Below are positions 21,741-32,125 of a DNA stretch of 32,125 nucleotides, one piece after another. Every line of letters begins with the position of its first letter. Position 1 is the first letter of the stretch. A program made the translations under genes and the position numbers. Where the stretch lies: assembly GCA_031282145.1 (NCBI GenBank), contig JAITEG010000072.1, forward strand, positions 1 through 32,125. The letters are read 5' to 3'. The notes under the pieces were generated by a model. That model searched no databases, was not told the origin of the DNA, and worked only from the letters and a program-made list of their open reading frames with translations. This DNA comes from Spirochaetaceae bacterium (GTDB lineage: Bacteria > Spirochaetota > Spirochaetia > Treponematales > Breznakiellaceae).

Positions 21741-21804
21741 TGAGCTTTTTTCAAAATTCGGTTGGTTTTGAAAACGCCCCTAATGTTTTAATTTGGAGGA
21801 AAAG

Positions 21805-23130
21805 ATGAAACAAAGAAAAAATCTCGTCGGGTTATTGGCAGCCGGACTCTCCCTGCTGATCCTGCTGACAGCCTGTCAGGGCAAGTCCACAAGCGCCGGT
21901 TCCGGCGACCAATCGACGGAGGGAAGACGCGCGGAGGAGCCAAAGGTCGTTACCTTTTTGGTTGACAAGGATAGTGATTTTACCGGCGCCCAAGCGGTCA
22001 TTGACGCCATAGAGCAGCAGCTTGGTATCCGGACCGAAGTGGAAGTCCGGGCAGGGGGTACCGAAGGGGATAATATCATTAAAACCCGGTTGGCCACCGG
22101 CGATATGGCGGATCTCTTCTGGTACAATACCGGTTCTCTGCTCCAGGCCATCAACCCCGAGCGGAATATTATGGATATAACCGATGAACCCTTTGCCGCT
22201 CAGCTGACCGATGACTTTAAGCGCTCGGCGTCGGTGAACGGCCGGCTCTATGCGGTTCCCCAGGGTTCAACCCAGGCCGGAGCCATCCTTTACAACAAGA
22301 AAATATACCGGGATCTTGGCCTTTCCGTGCCCCATACCTGGAAAGATTTTATAGCCAACTGCGAAAAAGTTCAGGCTGCCGGATTGATCGGGGTTATCGC
22401 ATCCCTCAAGGACAGCTGGACCTCTCAGCTTTTTATCCTGGGAGATGAATACAATGTAAAGGCCCTCCAGCCCAATTTCCCTGAGGAGTATACCGCCAAT
22501 CGGGCCAAATATGCCACCAATGCCGTGGCCCGGCGGGGTTTTGAAAAGATCGCCGAAACCGGCCGGTTTTTGAACCGGGATTATTTGGCAACCACCTACG
22601 ATATGGCCGCCGAGATGCTTGCGGAAGGGCAGGGCGCCCATTGGGCCATATTAACCCAGGCGCTCAGTACCATCAACACGAATTATCCCGACAAAATCGA
22701 TGATATTGGGGTATTTGGTATTCCCGGGGATGATCCCAATAATCACGGATTAACCGTATGGATTTCCAATGGTCTTTATATTTATAAAAACACCCCCAAT
22801 GCGGAACTGGCGAAACAGTGGGTTGACTTCTATGTCTCCCAGGAAGGGGTTTCCATTTACAGTTCCGCCCGGAAACCCGACGGGCCCTTCTCCATTAAAG
22901 GCATCACTCTTCCCGCCGATTCCTATGCGGGGGTTAGGGAGATGCAGCCCTATTTTAACGATGGAAAAACCGATGTGGCCCTGGAATTTGAGTCCCCGGT
23001 TAAGGGTCCAAATCTGGAGCAGATTTGTATTGAGGTTTTCTCCGGCATAACCAGTCCGCAGGCGGCGGCGGCGGCCTACGATCAGGATGTGCAGAAGCAG
23101 GCGGTACAGTTAAATCTGCCGGGCTGGTAG
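21805..23130 (+). CDS. ABC sugar transporter solute-binding lipoprotein
   Basis: MKQRKNLVGLLAAGLSLLILLTACQGKS (lipobox). SBP family 1 type sequence. ATG at 21805 with upstream ggagg. Confidence 0.92.
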   Translation: MKQRKNLVGLLAAGLSLLILLTACQGKSTSAGSGDQSTEGRRAEEPKVVTFLVDKDSDFTGAQAVIDAIEQQLGIRTEVEVRAGGTEGDNIIKTRLATGDMADLFWYNTGSLLQAINPERNIMDITDEPFAAQLTDDFKRSASVNGRLYAVPQGSTQAGAILYNKKIYRDLGLSVPHTWKDFIANCEKVQAAGLIGVIASLKDSWTSQLFILGDEYNVKALQPNFPEEYTANRAKYATNAVARRGFEKIAETGRFLNRDYLATTYDMAAEMLAEGQGAHWAILTQALSTINTNYPDKIDDIGVFGIPGDDPNNHGLTVWISNGLYIYKNTPNAELAKQWVDFYVSQEGVSIYSSARKPDGPFSIKGITLPADSYAGVREMQPYFNDGKTDVALEFESPVKGPNLEQICIEVFSGITSPQAAAAAYDQDVQKQAVQLNLPGW

Positions 23131-23163
23131 ACCAGTAAAAAAACTGATTTTTTACTTGGCCCG

Positions 23164-23216
23164 GAGTTTGGGTGGCATTTTAAAAAAATACCGCCCAAAC
23201 TCTATGGTCTTTTTTT
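23164..23216 (+). terminator. Stem-loop plus T-run between SBP and permease genes (attenuator/partial terminator)
   Basis: GAGTTTGGGTGG (23164-23175) pairs with CCGCCCAAACTC (23191-23202), with one G-U pair. T-run at about 23210-23216. Confidence 0.7.
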
Positions 23217-23255
23217 CGGACATCTGCCGATATCGTTTTGACCGGAGTATGAAAA

Positions 23256-24113
23256 TTGCAAAGTAAAATTTACAATCCATGGTTTTTGATGCCCTTGCTG
23301 CTTGTTTATGGCGTATTGTTTATAATTCCTACAATTATCTCATTCTTTTTCAGCTTAACCGTATGGACCCTGTTTGATTTTCGTTTTGTGGGATTCTATA
23401 ATTTTGTTACCTTCTTTTCTGAATATTCCCTGCGGATAGGCGTCAAGAATACCCTTATTTATGCGGCCTTGACCTGCGGATTTAAGGCAGTGATCGGCTT
23501 GGGCCTGGCAGTACTGCTTACGTCAAAAATAAAAACCAAACACATTATCCGCTCGATCCTCTTTTTCCCCAATCTGGTAAGCACTATCGCCGTGGGTTTG
23601 ACCTTTAGCGCACTGATGCACCCTACCAAAGGCCTCTTTAATAGCCTCTTGGCGGGTCTGGGCATTGAGGGTCCTGATTGGCTGGGTAATATCTCCCTGG
23701 CCCTCTACTCGGTGATCTTTACCGATGTCTGGAAAGGGGTTGGGGTAGCCACGGTGATCTACATTGCCGGTCTCCAGGCGATACCGGAAACCTACTATGA
23801 GGCGGCCGCTATTGACGGCGCCGGAGGGTTTCTCCGCTTCCGCCATATCACCTTGCCGCTGGTTCGTTCTTCTATTAATACGGTTATCATCCTTGCCTTT
23901 ATCGGGGGGATCCGTACTTTCGATTTGATATGGTCCATGACCAAGGGAGGCCCCGGCTTTGCCACCGATACTTTGGCATCCATTATTTATAAACAGTACG
24001 CATACGGATTTTACGGGTTGGCAACCGCGGGGAATGTGGTTATGTTTTTCCTCATTGCCTTTATTGCTTTTCCCCTGTATAAATTCCTCATCAGCAGGGA
24101 GGTAGACCTTTGA
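23256..24113 (+). CDS. ABC sugar transporter permease (MalF/UgpA type)
   Basis: Multi-TM protein, EAA-like motif YYEAAAIDGAGGFLRFRHITLPLVR. Possible TTG start. Confidence 0.92.
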   Translation: MQSKIYNPWFLMPLLLVYGVLFIIPTIISFFFSLTVWTLFDFRFVGFYNFVTFFSEYSLRIGVKNTLIYAALTCGFKAVIGLGLAVLLTSKIKTKHIIRSILFFPNLVSTIAVGLTFSALMHPTKGLFNSLLAGLGIEGPDWLGNISLALYSVIFTDVWKGVGVATVIYIAGLQAIPETYYEAAAIDGAGGFLRFRHITLPLVRSSINTVIILAFIGGIRTFDLIWSMTKGGPGFATDTLASIIYKQYAYGFYGLATAGNVVMFFLIAFIAFPLYKFLISREVDL

Positions 24114-24940
24114 TGAAAAAGAAACGGGTTGCCCTTTTAGCTGATATTGTCTCCATGGTTCTGGCTTTTATCATTTTTATTATTCCCTTTTATTTCATCT
24201 TTCTTAATTCTCTTAAAAACCGCAGGGAATCGGGATTGATGAATCTTAAATGGCCCGATGCCCTGCATTTTGAAAATTATCCTGAAGTCATAAGCACCCA
24301 AAATTATATGATTGTCCGGGCTTTCCTGAACAGCGTTGTTATTACCGCCGGGGGAATCGTATGTCTGGTGGTGATATGCGCCCTGGGGGGATATATTTTG
24401 CAGCGGGTGACCAGCAAACTGATGACGGGGATCAACTTTCTTATCCTCACGGGGCTCATGCTGCCCCCGGCCATTTTGCCTACCATTTGGGTTATGCAGG
24501 TTATCGGCATATACCGTTCCCTCTTTGGGATGATCCTGGTGGAGGCCGCTTTAAACATCCCCTTTACGGTCATGCTCTACCGGGGTTATACCGCGTCCAT
24601 ACCCCGGGAAATAGAAGAGGCCGCCTATGTAGACGGCTGCAACTCGGTGCGTTTGTTTGTACAAATTATTTTTCCCCTGCTCCTGCCGGTAACCGCTACC
24701 GTAATTGTCCTTTCCTCCGTTAACATCTTTAATGATTTCGTAAACCCCCTGTACTTTTTGCCCGGATCAAGAAGTCCCACCGTACAGCTGACGCTGTATA
24801 ATTTTATGGGCCGTTACGCCAGCTCCTGGAACCTGCTTTTTGCCGATGTGGTGTTGATCACCATTCCGCCGTTGCTGCTGTTTATTTTCTTCAACAGAAA
24901 AATCGTCTCCGGCATTACCGCCGGTGCGGTGAAGGGTTGA
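24113..24940 (+). CDS. ABC sugar transporter permease (MalG/UgpE type)
   Basis: EAA-like motif IEEAAYVDGCNSVRLFVQIIFPLLLP. TGATG-type overlap with the upstream gene. Confidence 0.92.
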   Translation: MKKKRVALLADIVSMVLAFIIFIIPFYFIFLNSLKNRRESGLMNLKWPDALHFENYPEVISTQNYMIVRAFLNSVVITAGGIVCLVVICALGGYILQRVTSKLMTGINFLILTGLMLPPAILPTIWVMQVIGIYRSLFGMILVEAALNIPFTVMLYRGYTASIPREIEEAAYVDGCNSVRLFVQIIFPLLLPVTATVIVLSSVNIFNDFVNPLYFLPGSRSPTVQLTLYNFMGRYASSWNLLFADVVLITIPPLLLFIFFNRKIVSGITAGAVKG

Positions 24941-25000
24941 TGGCAGAGGGAACATGAGCCTAAACCGCCTCTGATTCGGGGTAATTTATCTTCGCCCTAC

Positions 25001-25037
25001 TTGTGTCCTCATTAGTTCTCTACTATACTACAGTATA
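25001..25037 (+). promoter_or_regulatory. Candidate promoter with overlapping palindromic operator
   Basis: TTGTGT (25001-25006), 17-nt spacer, TATACT (25024-25029). The -10 box forms one arm of the palindrome TATACT-ac-AGTATA (25024-25037). Confidence 0.4.
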
Positions 25038-25061
25038 AATCCCCTTCATAAAGGACATAGT

Positions 25062-26027
25062 ATGGTTGCCGTATTGGAAAAACTTGGAAAAATCGGTATT
25101 GTGCCGGTTATTAAGATCGATGATCCGGAAAAGGCGGTTCCCCTGGCCCGGGCCCTTCTGGCCGGCGGGATTCCCTGTGCGGAGATCACTTTCCGGACCA
25201 GTCAAGGAGAAGCGGCCCTGGGCCGGATAAGCAGGGAAGTTCCGGAGATCCTCCTTGGGGCCGGGACGGTATTAACGGTTGAACAGGTCGATAAGGCGAT
25301 CGCCGCAGGGGCGAAGTTCATCGTTAGTCCCGGTTTTAATCCCCGGGTGGTACAGCACTGTATTGACCAGGGTATCCCCATTACCCCGGGATGCTCCAAC
25401 CCTTCGGATATGGAGGCCGCCCTGGAAGCGGGGCTTGAGGTAGTTAAGTTTTTTCCTGCCGAACAATCGGGGGGGCTGGATTATATCAAAGCCGTGGCAG
25501 CCCCCTACACCACCTTAAAATTCATGCCCACCGGGGGCATTAACGCGCTTAATATCGCCGCCTATACCTCCTATGAAAAGATCCTCGCCTGCGGCGGTTC
25601 CTGGATGGTTCCCGCCGACCGGATCAACGCGGGAGATTTTGACACCATCACGGCCCTTTGCAAAGAAGCGGTGTCCAAAATTTTGGGATTCTCCCTGGTC
25701 CATGTGGGGATCAACGCGGCCAATGAAAATGAAGCGCTCAAGGCGGCCCGGCTCTTTGAGACCATGTTCGGTTTTACCGCCAAAAGCGGGACCAGTTCTA
25801 TTTTTTCCGGAGAGGGTATCGAAATCATGAAGTCCCCCTACCTGGGTAAAAACGGGCACATCGCCATCGGAACCAACAGCCTCAAACGGGGAATCGCGTA
25901 CCTGGAGCGGAAAGGCTTCACCTTTAACCCCGACAGCCTAAAAACCGATGCCCGGGGAGTCATGGCCGCCCTTTATCTCTCTGATGAAATTGCCGGTTTC
26001 GCGGTACATTTGGTACAAAAGAAGTAA
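25062..26027 (+). CDS. eda: KDPG/KHG aldolase with C-terminal glyoxalase/VOC-like domain
   Basis: Aldolase part: IGIVPVIKIDDPEKAVPLARALLAGGIPCAEITFRT, GAGTVLTVEQVDKAIAAGAKFIVSPGFNP, VKFFPAEQSGGLDYIKAV, FMPTGGIN. The C-terminal ~110 aa (FSLVHVGINAANENEALKAARLFETMFGF...GHIAIGTNSLKRGIAYLERKGF) has a VOC-like pattern. Confidence 0.9.
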   Translation: MVAVLEKLGKIGIVPVIKIDDPEKAVPLARALLAGGIPCAEITFRTSQGEAALGRISREVPEILLGAGTVLTVEQVDKAIAAGAKFIVSPGFNPRVVQHCIDQGIPITPGCSNPSDMEAALEAGLEVVKFFPAEQSGGLDYIKAVAAPYTTLKFMPTGGINALNIAAYTSYEKILACGGSWMVPADRINAGDFDTITALCKEAVSKILGFSLVHVGINAANENEALKAARLFETMFGFTAKSGTSSIFSGEGIEIMKSPYLGKNGHIAIGTNSLKRGIAYLERKGFTFNPDSLKTDARGVMAALYLSDEIAGFAVHLVQKK

Positions 26028-26038
26028 AGGAGCTCTAT

Positions 26039-27061
26039 ATGGAACGGGTTGTTACCTTTGGTGAAATTATGCTGCGCCTGGCCCCTGAGGGCTATTATCG
26101 TTTTGTCCAGGCCCATACCCTGGGGGCTACCTTTGGCGGGGGGGAGGCTAATGTGGCGATTTCCCTGGCCAATTTCGGCCTTAGCGCCGCCTTTGTCACC
26201 AAGCTGCCGAAACACGAGATAGGCCAGGCCGCGGTGAACAAGCTCCGGGAATTCGGGGTAGATACCTCCGGTATTGTCCGGGGCGGGAACCGGGTGGGGA
26301 TCTACTTCCTGGAAAAGGGGGCCTCCCAACGGCCCTCAAAGGTTATCTATGACCGGGCCCATTCCGCCATTGCCGAGGCCGCCCCGGAGGATTTTAACTG
26401 GAAGGCCCTTTTAACGGATGCGGCCTGGTTCCACTTTACCGGCATTACCCCCGCGTTGGGGGATACGGTAGCGGCCATAATGGAGGACGCCTGCAAACAG
26501 GCCAAAGCCCAGGGCATCACGGTCTCCTGCGACCTTAACTACCGCAAAAACCTCTGGTCCCGGGAAAAGGCCGGGGAAGTTATGGGCCGTCTTATGGACT
26601 ATGTGGACGTCTGCATTGCCAATGAGGAGGATGCCGCGGATGTTTTTGGTATTCATGCGGATAATTCCGATGTCTCAGGCGGAAAGATAAACCGGGAAGG
26701 GTATCAGGGGGTAGCCCGGGCCCTTGCGGAACGGTTTGGATTTAAGAAGGTGGCCATTACCTTGCGGGAATCCATTTCGGCCAATGATAATAATTGGGCC
26801 GCCATGCTCTACGAGGGCGGGGCCTTTTATTTTTCCAAGAAATACCCCGTCCGGATCGTTGACCGTGTGGGAGGCGGCGACAGTTTCGGCGCGGGCCTTA
26901 TCTATGGGACCCTCAAGTCCCTGCCTCCTCAAGCGGCCATCGAATTCGCCGTGGCCGCAAGCTGCCTTAAACACAGCGTCGAAGGGGACTTTAACCACGT
27001 CTCGGTGGATGAGGTGCAAAAACTCGCCGGAGGAGACGCCTCGGGAAGGGTTCAGCGCTAA
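26039..27061 (+). CDS. kdgK: 2-keto-3-deoxygluconate kinase (PfkB family)
   Basis: VVTFGEIMLRLAPEGYYRFVQAHTLGATFGGGEANVAISLANFG, and the PfkB C-terminal motif VDRVGGGDSFGAGLIYG. Confidence 0.93.
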   Translation: MERVVTFGEIMLRLAPEGYYRFVQAHTLGATFGGGEANVAISLANFGLSAAFVTKLPKHEIGQAAVNKLREFGVDTSGIVRGGNRVGIYFLEKGASQRPSKVIYDRAHSAIAEAAPEDFNWKALLTDAAWFHFTGITPALGDTVAAIMEDACKQAKAQGITVSCDLNYRKNLWSREKAGEVMGRLMDYVDVCIANEEDAADVFGIHADNSDVSGGKINREGYQGVARALAERFGFKKVAITLRESISANDNNWAAMLYEGGAFYFSKKYPVRIVDRVGGGDSFGAGLIYGTLKSLPPQAAIEFAVAASCLKHSVEGDFNHVSVDEVQKLAGGDASGRVQR

Positions 27062-27160: not shown

Positions 27161-27962
27161 ATGGACAATATCATAGATTTTCTGAAAAACTATTCATTGC
27201 TCAAGCATAAAAACGTTGATTCGAACTTCTTTCAGATTACGGGATTTCCTCATTACGAAAATGTAAGTAGTAATGTTTTAAGTTTTTACTTTAAAAAGTG
27301 CCCCCTCGTTCTAAAAGCATTCTTGAATTGTATATCTTTTGTATAAGGATTTTTCCACTGAATTGAAAAAATATTATCCTGAACTGTTGAATAGTTTAGG
27401 GCATAAGTATTTCTTCCTTTTAACGGAATATATTGCAAATCTTGACTTTTTGGAAGGAGACTATTGTATGAACAAGGAATTTGTTGAAATTGCAAAACAG
27501 GACGACAACAGAGAAAAGATTGTACAGATTATGTCTGAAGGGAATCGTTTGCGTAATGACCTGAAAAATATGGCTTGCCAAATTAAAGATGATTTAATGA
27601 AATACAGTAAATCATTTGATAAGCAATCAGTTGATCAGGAGAAAGATCAAATGGCTGCTACTGCTTATTTTCAAAACTGTTGTTTGCCTGAAACAAAATA
27701 CAATGTCGCCATCGAGGTGATTGTTGATGTTGATGGGTTTGATATTCAGATATATGAAATTGAAAATCAATTTGATCCGGAATTCAAGAATATTCTGTTG
27801 GGGGAAATATTATCCGATAAAGAATATGAAATTAGATATTCTACCCGAGTAAATTATAAAGATCCAATAGAACTAGAAGAATACGACAAACTGATAAAAA
27901 TTCTTATAGATTTATTTAAGGCTTTTGATAATTATATTAACAACAAAAAGCATGGTGCATAA
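27161..27962 (+). pseudogene. Decayed AT-rich gene, PD-(D/E)XK nuclease-type N-terminus, apparently frameshifted and internally deleted
   Basis: MDNIIDFLKNYSLLKHKNVDSNFFQITGFPHYENVSSNVLSFYFKKCPLVLKAFLNCISFV resembles the N-terminal region of PDDEXK_4-like proteins. A continuation (YKDFSTELKKYYPELLNSLGHKYFFLLTEYIANLDFL...) lies in another frame starting about 27339. No catalytic D...ExK block is apparent between them. Confidence 0.5.
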
Positions 27963-28010: not shown

Positions 28011-29498
28011 TCATTCGGGCCGCCAAACCGTCGTAAACAACCGGTAGTCGATTATCTCCTGTTCCACCCCAAGGGCGGTCTCTTCTATCCGCCGGATGAG
28101 TTCCTCCACGCCCGGGAGGGAGCGGGTTTCACGGGTGATAAGCCCTATCCGCCGCAGCATGGTTGGTTCCAGTTTCCTGCCGCAGTTCCGGTAACGGTCA
28201 AAAGTGGCGGCGTTCATCCCGACCGGTTGTATTTTTTTGCCCGTGATTTCCCCCAGTTCCTGGAGGATGAGGAGGCCGTCGGGGTCCAGGTCGCCGGCGT
28301 GGAAAAAGGTGAACCCTGATTGGGCGAGAAGCGACGCCAGGGTCTGGGCCGCCCGGTTAGGATGGCCCCCGGTATAGAGAAAACAGGTATAACCCGGCAG
28401 AGATTCCGCCAAGGCGAAAAAGGTTTCCTTGTTTTCGATCATCAGCACCGATGGGGTCTTTCCTTTTATGGGCGTGATGGACCGCACTTTCCGGATCGTC
28501 CCCAGGGGAAGGGCAAGAATGCTTCCCGTGGCGTTTACCATGGGGGCCGTTTCCGGGGAACCGGGCGGTGTCCCGTTCCCAAAACCGGATGGGGTGTTCC
28601 CGGAGCCGGGGGTTTCTTCAAACTGAAACAGGATCTTCCCGGCAATAAAGGTTTCCGGGAAAGAACGATCCAAAAAAGCAAAGTCCGGAACCGCAACCCC
28701 CAATCTCCGGGCCCGGGAGAGGAGGGGGGTAAATCGGCTAATCAGGGCTTCCAACCGCTTGGAATCCCCGTAGAGGGCAACCGACAGGGCCCGGGGGGTG
28801 ATCCCCTCAGGCCAGCCGGTTTTGGCCCCTGGAGTAGGGCGAAGGGCGGACATCTCGCGCCCTGCTAGGCCATCTACGCCCTCCGCGTCACCCAAGTAAC
28901 CCCCCTGGGGAGCCGCGCCGGAAAAAAAGCCCGTGAGCCGGGCCAGATCCCGTACCGCCTTCACCTCGAGCCCCAGGGCCGCGTCCTGGGGGGTGAAATT
29001 TTGAGCGATAAAGGCAAAAAGGGCGATTTCAATTTCCCCGGCTTCAGGGGCGATGCCGCTCCGCTCTTGACGGCGCCCTTCGGCGGCAAGCGCCAAAGTC
29101 CGGGCGGTTTCCCGGACCTCTTCAGCCACGGTTCGGGGAGAGGGCTTTCCCGCCAGCTCAAAGAGCAGCTCCGCTTTCCGGCAAACCAGGGCGCGGATCG
29201 CCTCGCCCTTTCGGTGGCGGACCCAGACCAGGGAGAGGAGGCCCCGCTGTTCCAGGGCCTCGGCGGCCTCCAAAAAAGATTCCCGCTCATCCGGGGACGC
29301 CTGCTCAAAACCGGGAAAGATCCGGTCCGGCTGCAGCCTGAGCGGGCGGCCTTCCCGGCTCGGGGCCTCCCCGCCATTGGCGCGGCTTTCATTACCGGCG
29401 GCTTTGACAAATCCCTCCACCCCGGAAACCGCGGCCGCCGCGGACACGGGGTATCGTTCCACAAAAGCCTCGATAATCCGCTTTTCCCAAACCGTCAC
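28011..29498 (-). CDS. jetD: Wadjet system protein JetD (Toprim-like nuclease subunit)
   Basis: C-terminal Toprim-like motifs VLMIENKETFF and FTFFHAGDLDPDGLLILQEL. It lies 2 bp downstream of the jetC stop. Overall layout matches DUF2220/JetD proteins. Confidence 0.85.
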   Translation of the reverse strand: MTVWEKRIIEAFVERYPVSAAAAVSGVEGFVKAAGNESRANGGEAPSREGRPLRLQPDRIFPGFEQASPDERESFLEAAEALEQRGLLSLVWVRHRKGEAIRALVCRKAELLFELAGKPSPRTVAEEVRETARTLALAAEGRRQERSGIAPEAGEIEIALFAFIAQNFTPQDAALGLEVKAVRDLARLTGFFSGAAPQGGYLGDAEGVDGLAGREMSALRPTPGAKTGWPEGITPRALSVALYGDSKRLEALISRFTPLLSRARRLGVAVPDFAFLDRSFPETFIAGKILFQFEETPGSGNTPSGFGNGTPPGSPETAPMVNATGSILALPLGTIRKVRSITPIKGKTPSVLMIENKETFFALAESLPGYTCFLYTGGHPNRAAQTLASLLAQSGFTFFHAGDLDPDGLLILQELGEITGKKIQPVGMNAATFDRYRNCGRKLEPTMLRRIGLITRETRSLPGVEELIRRIEETALGVEQEIIDYRLFTTVWRPE

Positions 29499-29500
29499 GG

Positions 29501-32125
29501 TCAGGTCTCCGCGGCGGCCGCATGGGCGCTACCGGCATCCCTCACCATACCGGCACTGGTATCGGTGTGGAAATCCCGTACCCGGGCGGAGTAGCCGTGG
29601 CGGATTACCAGGTTGATCCGGTCCATGTGGGGGGCGATGGCCTCGATCTTTTCCGTGGGAACGGAGCTGATAATCTGGATATTCAGGTCCCGGTAAAATT
29701 TCAGGATCTTGCCGATGCGCTCATCATCCATACGGTTAAAGGCCTCGTCAAACATCACCAGCCGTATGGTATCTTCGGGCCGGGCCTTGTAGAAGCGGTA
29801 AAAACTCGCCGCAATGGCCACATAGTACGGAGTCTGGGTTTCGCCGCCGGATTTTTCCCGGAGGACCTTGGAAAGGGAAAGCTCCACCGGTTTTCCCGTG
29901 TTTTGATCGATCACATCGGTCTCTTTGATCTTAATATCGTAATGAAAGTAGGTCCGGTAGTCGCAGATACTCCGCAGTTCCGGAGAGTCGAGGTTGGCGT
30001 TGAGGATCCGTTCAAACAGATCCTGGGCGGCCTTTAACTCCGCGGGGTCCACCAGTTGGGAAAAGAGACTGTCCTCCTGGGCGGGAATCTCCGCGGCCTT
30101 CCGGATAATTTCGATCTGCCCCTTCCGGTCATTCCGTTCCTCCAGGGTAAAGCGGTACTGATCCTGACCGAAACTCAAGGTCCGCAGGATTTCGTTGATC
30201 TCCCGGAAACTTTCCCGGGCATCCTCAATAAGCTCGTTGAGGCGGGAGATGAAGTGATCCTTGAATTCCTTTTCCGCATCCTGCCGGGCCCGGGCGATCT
30301 TTTCCCGGTATTCCGGCAGTTCCGACGTTTCCAGCCGTTTCAAAATCCGCTCGGCCTCGCCGTTCTCCGAAGGTTCCAGGGAGAGGAGGGCGTTAAACTC
30401 CCGGTCATAGGCTTGGGCCAGGTTCTGATATTCCTTTTTGAGATTCTCCACCCGGCTTCTGAAACCCTTGAGGGTGGATTCATAATTGTTTGCCAAATCC
30501 CGGAGGCTGTTTTTTTCGATCTGTTTCTCCGCGTAACCTTCACATTCCCCGATTTCCAGGGGGTGTTCCTCGGTAAAACGACGGATATCCCCTTCTTTTT
30601 CCTCCAGCGTACGGGCAATATCCAGAAGCTCCTCCTGGTAGGCGGCCGCGCTCCGATTCACGGCGCCCAGGCTTTCGTGGAGGCGGTTGATCCCGGTTTC
30701 GGCGTCCCGGATCTTCCTGGCCAGGGCATCCCGTTTTTCCTGCAGTTCCCGGAAACTCTTTGTGTCCACGGCGGCCAGCTCCTCCCGGGAGCGGGCCAGA
30801 TCCGCGGTGAGTTTTTCGCAAGCCTCCACCGCGGGGAGGAGAAATTGGAGTTCCGTGAGGGTCCGCGCCGCCCGGTGAAAGAGATCCTCCCGGAGCGCGG
30901 CTTCCTTTTCCCGCGCTTCCGCCTGGTCCCGTTCCTGCCGGAGCCGTTCCGACTCAAGCAGGAGGAACTCCCGCCGTTCCTTCCGGGCGGCCTGGCCCAG
31001 ATAGTGCCGGCGGTAAACGTCCTCCCGGATCCGGGAGGCGGTATGATTGCCGTAGGTCATACATTCTTTGGTAACGGCAAAAGCGTATTTCTTGAGGCTT
31101 CCGATGTCGGCGCGGATCACCTCCCCCAGCACATAGTCTAGGTAGATCCGGGCATAGGGGGAAGCGGTGCTGACCAGTTCAGCCAGGCTCTCCTTCCGTT
31201 TTTCGGCGTCCCGCATTTTTTCCAGGTTGGGGAGGAAGGCCCCGGCAACGCTCCGGGGAAGACCGTCGTAAATTTCCAGCGCCCGCTGAAAGTCGGAACT
31301 TTCCACCAGGAGGGCAAAGCGGCGGGTGTTAAGCCAGCCCTCCACCGCGTCGGCCCAGGCGGGATCGTCGACATCGGCGACGTCCGCAAGGAACCAGGCG
31401 GAAATTCCGGCTTTTTCCAGGGCATCCCGAAGGGCGGTGGGGGCGTCGGGATAGCGGAGAATACCCTTCTCTAAGTCCGCGAGTTCCGCCAATACCTCCC
31501 GGAGGGCCAAAATCGTCTCGGTCTTTAGCCGCCGGGCATCCTCCTTTTCCGCCCGGCTTTTCCCTTCCTCCTCCTCCACGGCCCGCATATCCTCCCCGGG
31601 ATTTTCCCCCAGGGGCCGGCCTAAAAGACTTTCACACTGAGACTTGAGGAGCCGGTACCGGTCCGCCCGGGGCTGGGCCTCCTCCAGGTCCTTTTGCAGA
31701 CGGCTGATCCGCTCCTCAATACGCTGGTAGAGGAGGTGGGTTTCATTGGCCGCGAGGCTCATATCGGTTTCCCGTTGTTCCTGCTCCCATTCAAACCGCT
31801 GCCGTTCCTGGGCTTCAATTTCCTTTTTAAGAAAAAGGGCCTTCTCCTCGACTTCGGCCAGGCGGCGGAGCCGGTCCTGCTGCTTTTGTTCCTCCAGGTC
31901 CCGCTCAATCTTAAGTTTTAAATATTCCTGTTTCATGATGAGGCCCTGGTAGTTCCGCCACTCCGCCGCCCGGAGGTTTATTTTCCGCAGGGCCTCGATC
32001 CGCAGCACCGCGCCCCGGGCCTGGCGGTCCGCTTCCTTGTAGCTTTCCAGGTTATCCTTCATGGTGGTAATTTCCACCGGCCGGTCCTCCAGGATATAGT
32101 CGCACACAAAACGATCCACCGATAC
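29501..32125 (-). CDS. jetC: Wadjet system protein JetC (SMC/MukB-like ATPase), partial; N-terminus beyond right edge
   Basis: Long coiled-coil region, then the ABC signature-like LREKSGGETQTPYYVAIAASFYRFY and Walker B/D-loop IRLVMFDEAFNRMDDERIGKILKFYRDLNIQIISSVP. No Walker A in the window. The frame stays open to the edge, so the GTG at 32119 is probably not the true start. Confidence 0.85.
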   Translation of the reverse strand, partial: VSVDRFVCDYILEDRPVEITTMKDNLESYKEADRQARGAVLRIEALRKINLRAAEWRNYQGLIMKQEYLKLKIERDLEEQKQQDRLRRLAEVEEKALFLKKEIEAQERQRFEWEQEQRETDMSLAANETHLLYQRIEERISRLQKDLEEAQPRADRYRLLKSQCESLLGRPLGENPGEDMRAVEEEEGKSRAEKEDARRLKTETILALREVLAELADLEKGILRYPDAPTALRDALEKAGISAWFLADVADVDDPAWADAVEGWLNTRRFALLVESSDFQRALEIYDGLPRSVAGAFLPNLEKMRDAEKRKESLAELVSTASPYARIYLDYVLGEVIRADIGSLKKYAFAVTKECMTYGNHTASRIREDVYRRHYLGQAARKERREFLLLESERLRQERDQAEAREKEAALREDLFHRAARTLTELQFLLPAVEACEKLTADLARSREELAAVDTKSFRELQEKRDALARKIRDAETGINRLHESLGAVNRSAAAYQEELLDIARTLEEKEGDIRRFTEEHPLEIGECEGYAEKQIEKNSLRDLANNYESTLKGFRSRVENLKKEYQNLAQAYDREFNALLSLEPSENGEAERILKRLETSELPEYREKIARARQDAEKEFKDHFISRLNELIEDARESFREINEILRTLSFGQDQYRFTLEERNDRKGQIEIIRKAAEIPAQEDSLFSQLVDPAELKAAQDLFERILNANLDSPELRSICDYRTYFHYDIKIKETDVIDQNTGKPVELSLSKVLREKSGGETQTPYYVAIAASFYRFYKARPEDTIRLVMFDEAFNRMDDERIGKILKFYRDLNIQIISSVPTEKIEAIAPHMDRINLVIRHGYSARVRDFHTDTSAGMVRDAGSAHAAAAET

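What the first reader, a model, noticed from the sequence alone, without database searches (positions are those of the whole stretch)
28011..32125. Wadjet-type SMC defence operon (jetC-jetD), partly outside the window
A MukB/SMC-like ATPase with SGGETQT signature and FDEAFNRMDD Walker B is directly followed, with a 2-bp gap, by a Toprim-containing JetD-like protein. Wadjet systems (JetABCD) are established anti-plasmid complexes that cleave small circular DNA. jetA and jetB should lie just right of 32125. The layout suggests a non-type-I variant, but this was not verified.
Basis: partly seen in the sequence, partly recalled or inferred. Interest (0 to 1): 0.6.

Follow-up and report, generated by a model that had tools for sequence, protein, structure and literature searches.

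The report
Type I Wadjet anti-plasmid genes jetC-jetD
These are two genes (motor and nuclease) of a known bacterial system that destroys small plasmids, from a termite-gut spirochaete; the machine looks ordinary, but in this bacterium's close relatives its other two genes have been moved away from their usual place.

Summary
In detail: 28011-29498 (-) encodes JetD and 29501-32125 (-) encodes JetC, 2 bp apart, with JetC cut by the contig end after losing about 208 N-terminal residues, Walker A included. JetD keeps the Toprim and proposed nucleophile residues and models as a topoisomerase VI-A/Spo11 fold. Both genes are under purifying selection (dN/dS 0.11 and 0.33). The host is a termite-gut Treponema-like MAG that also has Smc and ScpA, so this is not its only condensin.

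jetA and jetB are nowhere in the host's 268 contigs, although the same profiles find them in 36 of 39 genomes with related JetC. They cannot be assumed to lie just right of 32125. The window's JetC belongs to a supported 10-member clade (95/99) with no canonical jetB-jetC junction in any of the eight members where it can be seen. Single contigs there show jetAB-gap-jetCD, jetCDAB and jetCD-4 kb-jetAB, and jetA carries its own conserved, leaderless-type promoter. The complex is probably a functional type I Wadjet encoded as two rearranged modules. New member of a known kind; modest interest.

The parts
29501..32125 (-). jetC (mksB/eptC): MukB/SMC-like ATPase, 874 aa present, 5' end cut by the contig end; about 208 N-terminal residues including Walker A missing
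   Evidence: ORF; JetC1 PDLC00519 671 bits, profile 415-1090/1097 in best stretch; alignment with complete relatives; contig end
29831..29851 (-). JetC ABC signature motif SGGETQT
   Evidence: SGGE and QT invariant in 10 sequences, with ETQT, ESQT or EAQT variants
29726..29758 (-). JetC Walker B region VMFDEAFNRMD
   Evidence: (SbcC_Walker_B); FDEAFNRMD invariant
28011..29498 (-). jetD (mksG): Toprim nuclease, 495 aa; low-confidence, probably disordered insertions at residues 25-48, 197-232 and 297-315
   Evidence: JetD1; JetD_C PF09983; alignment; model resembles topoisomerase VI-A
28434..28436 (-). JetD Toprim glutamate E355 (IENKE)
   Evidence: invariant in 15 sequences
28275..28295 (-). 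JetD Toprim DxD motif GDLDPDG (D403, D405)
   Evidence: D403 and D405 invariant in 15 sequences; one search aligns it to the solved MksG 8b7f
28056..28064 (-). JetD EQE (E479, E481), proposed equivalents of MksG E349/E351 (candidate nucleophiles)
   Evidence: invariant; role from PMC10123090; equivalence by pattern and position only

Best explanation
The locus is the jetC-jetD half of a type I Wadjet (MksBEFG/EptABCD) in a termite-gut Treponema-like spirochaete. JetC is the SMC motor that, with kleisin JetA and KITE JetB, extrudes DNA; when a small circular molecule is fully extruded, the Toprim nuclease JetD is released and cuts it, so small plasmids are lost. In this lineage the system is probably encoded as two separately transcribed modules, jetAB and jetCD, with jetAB missing from this assembly or on an unbinned contig. 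Shown: identity, type, intact visible motifs, purifying selection, and rearrangement in relatives. Inferred: the window's own missing jetAB, and plasmid cleavage (from characterised type I systems).
For: JetC1/JetD1 profile hits; relatives' JetA1/JetB1; catalytic residues invariant; JetD model matches topoisomerase VI-A 1d3y, E=3.7e-6; dN/dS 0.11 (JetC) and 0.33 (JetD) against the closest relative; JetA present in 39 of 44 JetC-bearing genomes of the family and never without JetC, patchy overall (44 of 115) as for a defence system; separate Smc and ScpA in the host; split clade 95/99; no jetB-jetC junction in visible clade members; jetA promoter-like TTGACA-17-TAGCGT/GAGCGT ending 6-7 nt before the ATG in 8/8 clade loci against a 0.4% background.
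Against: jetA, jetB and the JetC N-terminus are not seen in this genome; a decayed system is not excluded. One clade member (L008) has jetC without jetA, jetB or jetD on its contig. The PDC-S26-like gene beside jetD is a pseudogene, so local decay happens. JetD model confidence is moderate (pTM 0.56). No plasmid assay.
Confidence: 0.85

Rival explanations
1. A decaying or orphan jetC-jetD remnant: jetA and jetB have been lost in this strain and the pair no longer functions.
For: jetA/jetB absent from 268 contigs by three queries and two profiles; a neighbouring candidate defence gene is broken; L008 shows loss of jetD beside a retained jetC.
Against: Visible reading frames intact; strong purifying selection since divergence from L005, whose genome has jetA and jetB; MAG is about 91% complete and the contig breaks right here.
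Confidence: 0.12
2. A MukBEF/MksBEF-like condensin used for chromosome organisation rather than plasmid defence.
For: MksBEF in Pseudomonas organises chromosomes and JetC is MukB-like (PMC10586767).
Against: JetD nuclease with invariant catalytic residues is retained next to jetC; JetC is patchy, 44 of 115 genomes of the family; host has Smc and ScpA.
Confidence: 0.05
3. Canonical jetABCD operon whose jetA and jetB lie directly upstream of jetC and were merely cut off by the contig end.
For: Canonical order in most other spirochaete relatives and in two single-contig genomes.
Against: None of the eight testable members of the window's own 10-member clade has jetB adjoining jetC; the sister L005 has jetA divergent from jetC.
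Confidence: 0.15

Closest known systems
Type I Wadjet JetABCD (MksBEFG of Corynebacterium glutamicum, EptABCD of Mycobacterium smegmatis)
   Same: JetC1 SMC with SGGExQT and FDEAFNRMD; JetD1 with Toprim E and DxD and a C-terminal EQE; jetC-jetD order
   Different: Only jetC-jetD visible; JetD 495 aa with disordered insertions; in close relatives jetAB is moved away from jetCD, whereas mksFEBG order is described as conserved (PMC10123090)
MukBEF / MksBEF condensins
   Same: MukB-like SMC ATPase head and coiled coils
   Different: Accompanied by a JetD nuclease; host has Smc and ScpA for chromosome work
Wadjet types II and III
   Same: Same subunit classes; weak cross-hits of JetC and JetD to type II models
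   Different: Scores far lower (JetC2 best 46 bits against 671 for JetC1)
Topoisomerase VI-A / Spo11
   Same: Toprim fold of the JetD model
   Different: Part of an SMC gene pair; membership rests on JetD profiles, not this fold

Membership tests
Wadjet type I | JetC1 MukB-like SMC ATPase (DUF3584 class) | tested here: met
   PDLC00519 671 bits over the visible 874 aa
Wadjet type I | JetC Walker A | not testable with these tools
   Beyond the contig end; present in relatives as GDNGSGKST
Wadjet type I | JetD with C-terminal Toprim and conserved acidic residues | tested here: met
   JetD1 and JetD_C hits; E355, D403, D405, E479, E481 invariant; topo VI-A fold
Wadjet type I | JetA kleisin and JetB KITE in the same genome | tested here: inconclusive
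   Not found in the 268 contigs, but assembly 91% complete and contig broken inside jetC; both present in the same-genus genome G001 = G068
Wadjet type I | jetA-jetB-jetC-jetD contiguous operon | tested here: inconclusive
   C-D junction met; A-B side not visible; canonical junction absent in all testable clade members
Wadjet type I | Restriction of small circular plasmids | not testable with these tools
   Needs a plasmid assay
Wadjet type II or III | Best match to type II/III JetC and JetD models | tested here: not met
   JetC2 46 bits, JetD2 59 bits, JetD3 18 bits against 671 and 105 for type I
MksBEF/MukBEF without nuclease | No JetD/MksG gene | tested here: not met
   jetD is 2 bp downstream of jetC

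The most novel reading that the evidence does not exclude
A clade of type I Wadjet systems in termite-gut treponemes has broken the otherwise conserved jetABCD operon into two independently promoted modules (jetAB and jetCD) that are repeatedly relocated, while the genes are retained together and under selection; the window's system belongs to it. Operon-based defence finders would miss or mis-call such systems.
Probability: 0.7. Interest if true: 0.4.

Novelty: new member of a known kind. Interest (0 to 1): 0.3.

Why it matters
It extends type I Wadjet to termite-gut spirochaetes and suggests that its jetAB (kleisin and KITE) module and its jetCD (motor and nuclease) module need not be co-transcribed. 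That raises a testable regulatory question (how the stoichiometry of nuclease and sensor is kept when the genes are apart), and it warns that annotation rules requiring all four genes side by side will undercount Wadjet.

Tried and rejected
Extending the contig right: impossible, the window is the whole contig. jetB by Pfam DUF4194 and jetA/jetB by single proteins and by profiles in the host genome: nothing. Single-sequence search of the PDB: nothing; profiles reach MksG 8b7f and JetC 8dk1. Literature on split Wadjet operons, or on Wadjet in spirochaetes or termites: nothing relevant in the held library. Type II/III assignment rejected on scores. A phase-variable jetA in the sister genome was considered from two contigs sharing the jetA 5' end, but strain mixture or a chimeric contig explains it as well, so it is not claimed.

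Full report
What is there. The minus strand carries JetD at 28011-29498 (495 aa) and JetC at 29501-32125 (874 aa, open at the contig end), 2 bp apart. The window is the whole of contig C44 of a 3.04 Mb, 268-contig assembly, so the JetC start cannot be read. Aligned with complete relatives, the window JetC lacks about 208 N-terminal residues, which hold Walker A; the ABC signature and Walker B are intact.

Which family. PADLOC profiles give JetC1 at 671 bits and JetD1 at 105 bits, against 46 and 59 bits for the best type II models. Pfam gives JetD_C and SbcC Walker B. A JetD family profile reaches the solved MksG 8b7f (E=1.6e-4) and a JetC profile reaches solved JetC 8dk1 (E=7e-12). The JetD model (mean pLDDT 77.9, pTM 0.56) resembles topoisomerase VI-A 1d3y and Spo11, as described for MksG (PMC10123090). 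E355, D403, D405, E479 and E481 are invariant in 15 JetD sequences; the last two look equivalent to MksG E349/E351, by pattern only. So this is type I Wadjet, not a non-type-I variant.

Is it alive. Against the nearest relative (L005, JetC 91% identical over the aligned residues), dN/dS is 0.11 for JetC and 0.33 for JetD. The host also has Smc (C47) and ScpA (C91), so JetC is not its only condensin. In the GTDB family, 44 of 115 genomes have a strong JetC match; 39 of these have JetA, and no genome has JetA without JetC. Patchy presence with tight co-occurrence fits a defence complex that needs all its parts.

Where are jetA and jetB. They are not in the host assembly, although the same two profiles find them in 36 of 39 genomes. 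Most spirochaete relatives, including two single-contig genomes (loci L144 and L145), have the canonical jetABCD. The window's JetC, however, falls in a 10-member clade (support 95/99) in which no member shows the canonical jetB-jetC junction. In L010 jetAB and jetCD are separated by about 0.7 kb; L012 is jetC-jetD-jetA-jetB; L007 is jetC-jetD, about 4 kb, jetA-jetB, all on single contigs. In the sister L005 jetA is divergent from jetC. L006, L008, L009 and L031 have no jetA or jetB upstream of jetC over 1.6 to 5.1 kb. L011 and the window cannot be tested because the contig begins inside jetC. Other splits occur elsewhere in the tree: L014/L037 (AB-4.6 kb-CD) and L023/L025 (jetA apart from jetBCD).

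Why the modules can move. jetA has its own promoter-like sequence: TTGACA, 17 bp, TAGCGT or GAGCGT, ending 6-7 nt before the ATG, in 8 of 8 clade loci with a visible jetA start, and similar sequences in four canonical relatives; random 80-nt stretches of the same loci match the pattern in 0.4%. This spacing suggests a leaderless mRNA (inference). In L012 it overlaps the end of jetD, and in L135/L137 the two flanks diverge just upstream of it.

Mechanism. By analogy with characterised type I systems (PMC10586767; PMC10123090), JetABC extrudes DNA and JetD cuts circles that are completely extruded. [quoted passage not shown] None of this was tested for the present proteins.

Limits. Nearly all relatives in the clade are MAGs; strain mixture or misassembly could create some of the odd arrangements, but three different orders on uninterrupted contigs are hard to explain that way. 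The window genome's own jetAB and jetC start remain unseen.

Noticed in passing
window 27161-27959 (+): Broken gene of the candidate defence family PDC-S26: profile positions 1-46 in the first piece and 155-343 in the second, so an internal deletion of about 108 residues with a frame change.
   Followed up: partly
L008:1306-7697: Relative with jetC but no jetA, jetB or jetD on its contig; a repeat-like ORF follows jetC.
   Followed up: partly
L135:1-313 and L137:5354-5666: Two contigs of one MAG share 313 bp at the jetA 5' end (2 mismatches) but differ completely upstream of the promoter: two gene orders in near-identical strains, or a chimera.
   Followed up: partly
L023:5856-10574 and L025:5212-7359: jetA is on another contig while jetB-jetC-jetD stay together; in L023 a DNA-methyltransferase-like ORF (by sequence inspection only) lies between jetB and jetC.
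   Followed up: no
window 21793-27061 (+): Apparent sugar-acid utilisation cluster beside the Wadjet genes: solute-binding protein, two permease-like ORFs, KDPG/KHG aldolase and pfkB kinase.
   Followed up: no
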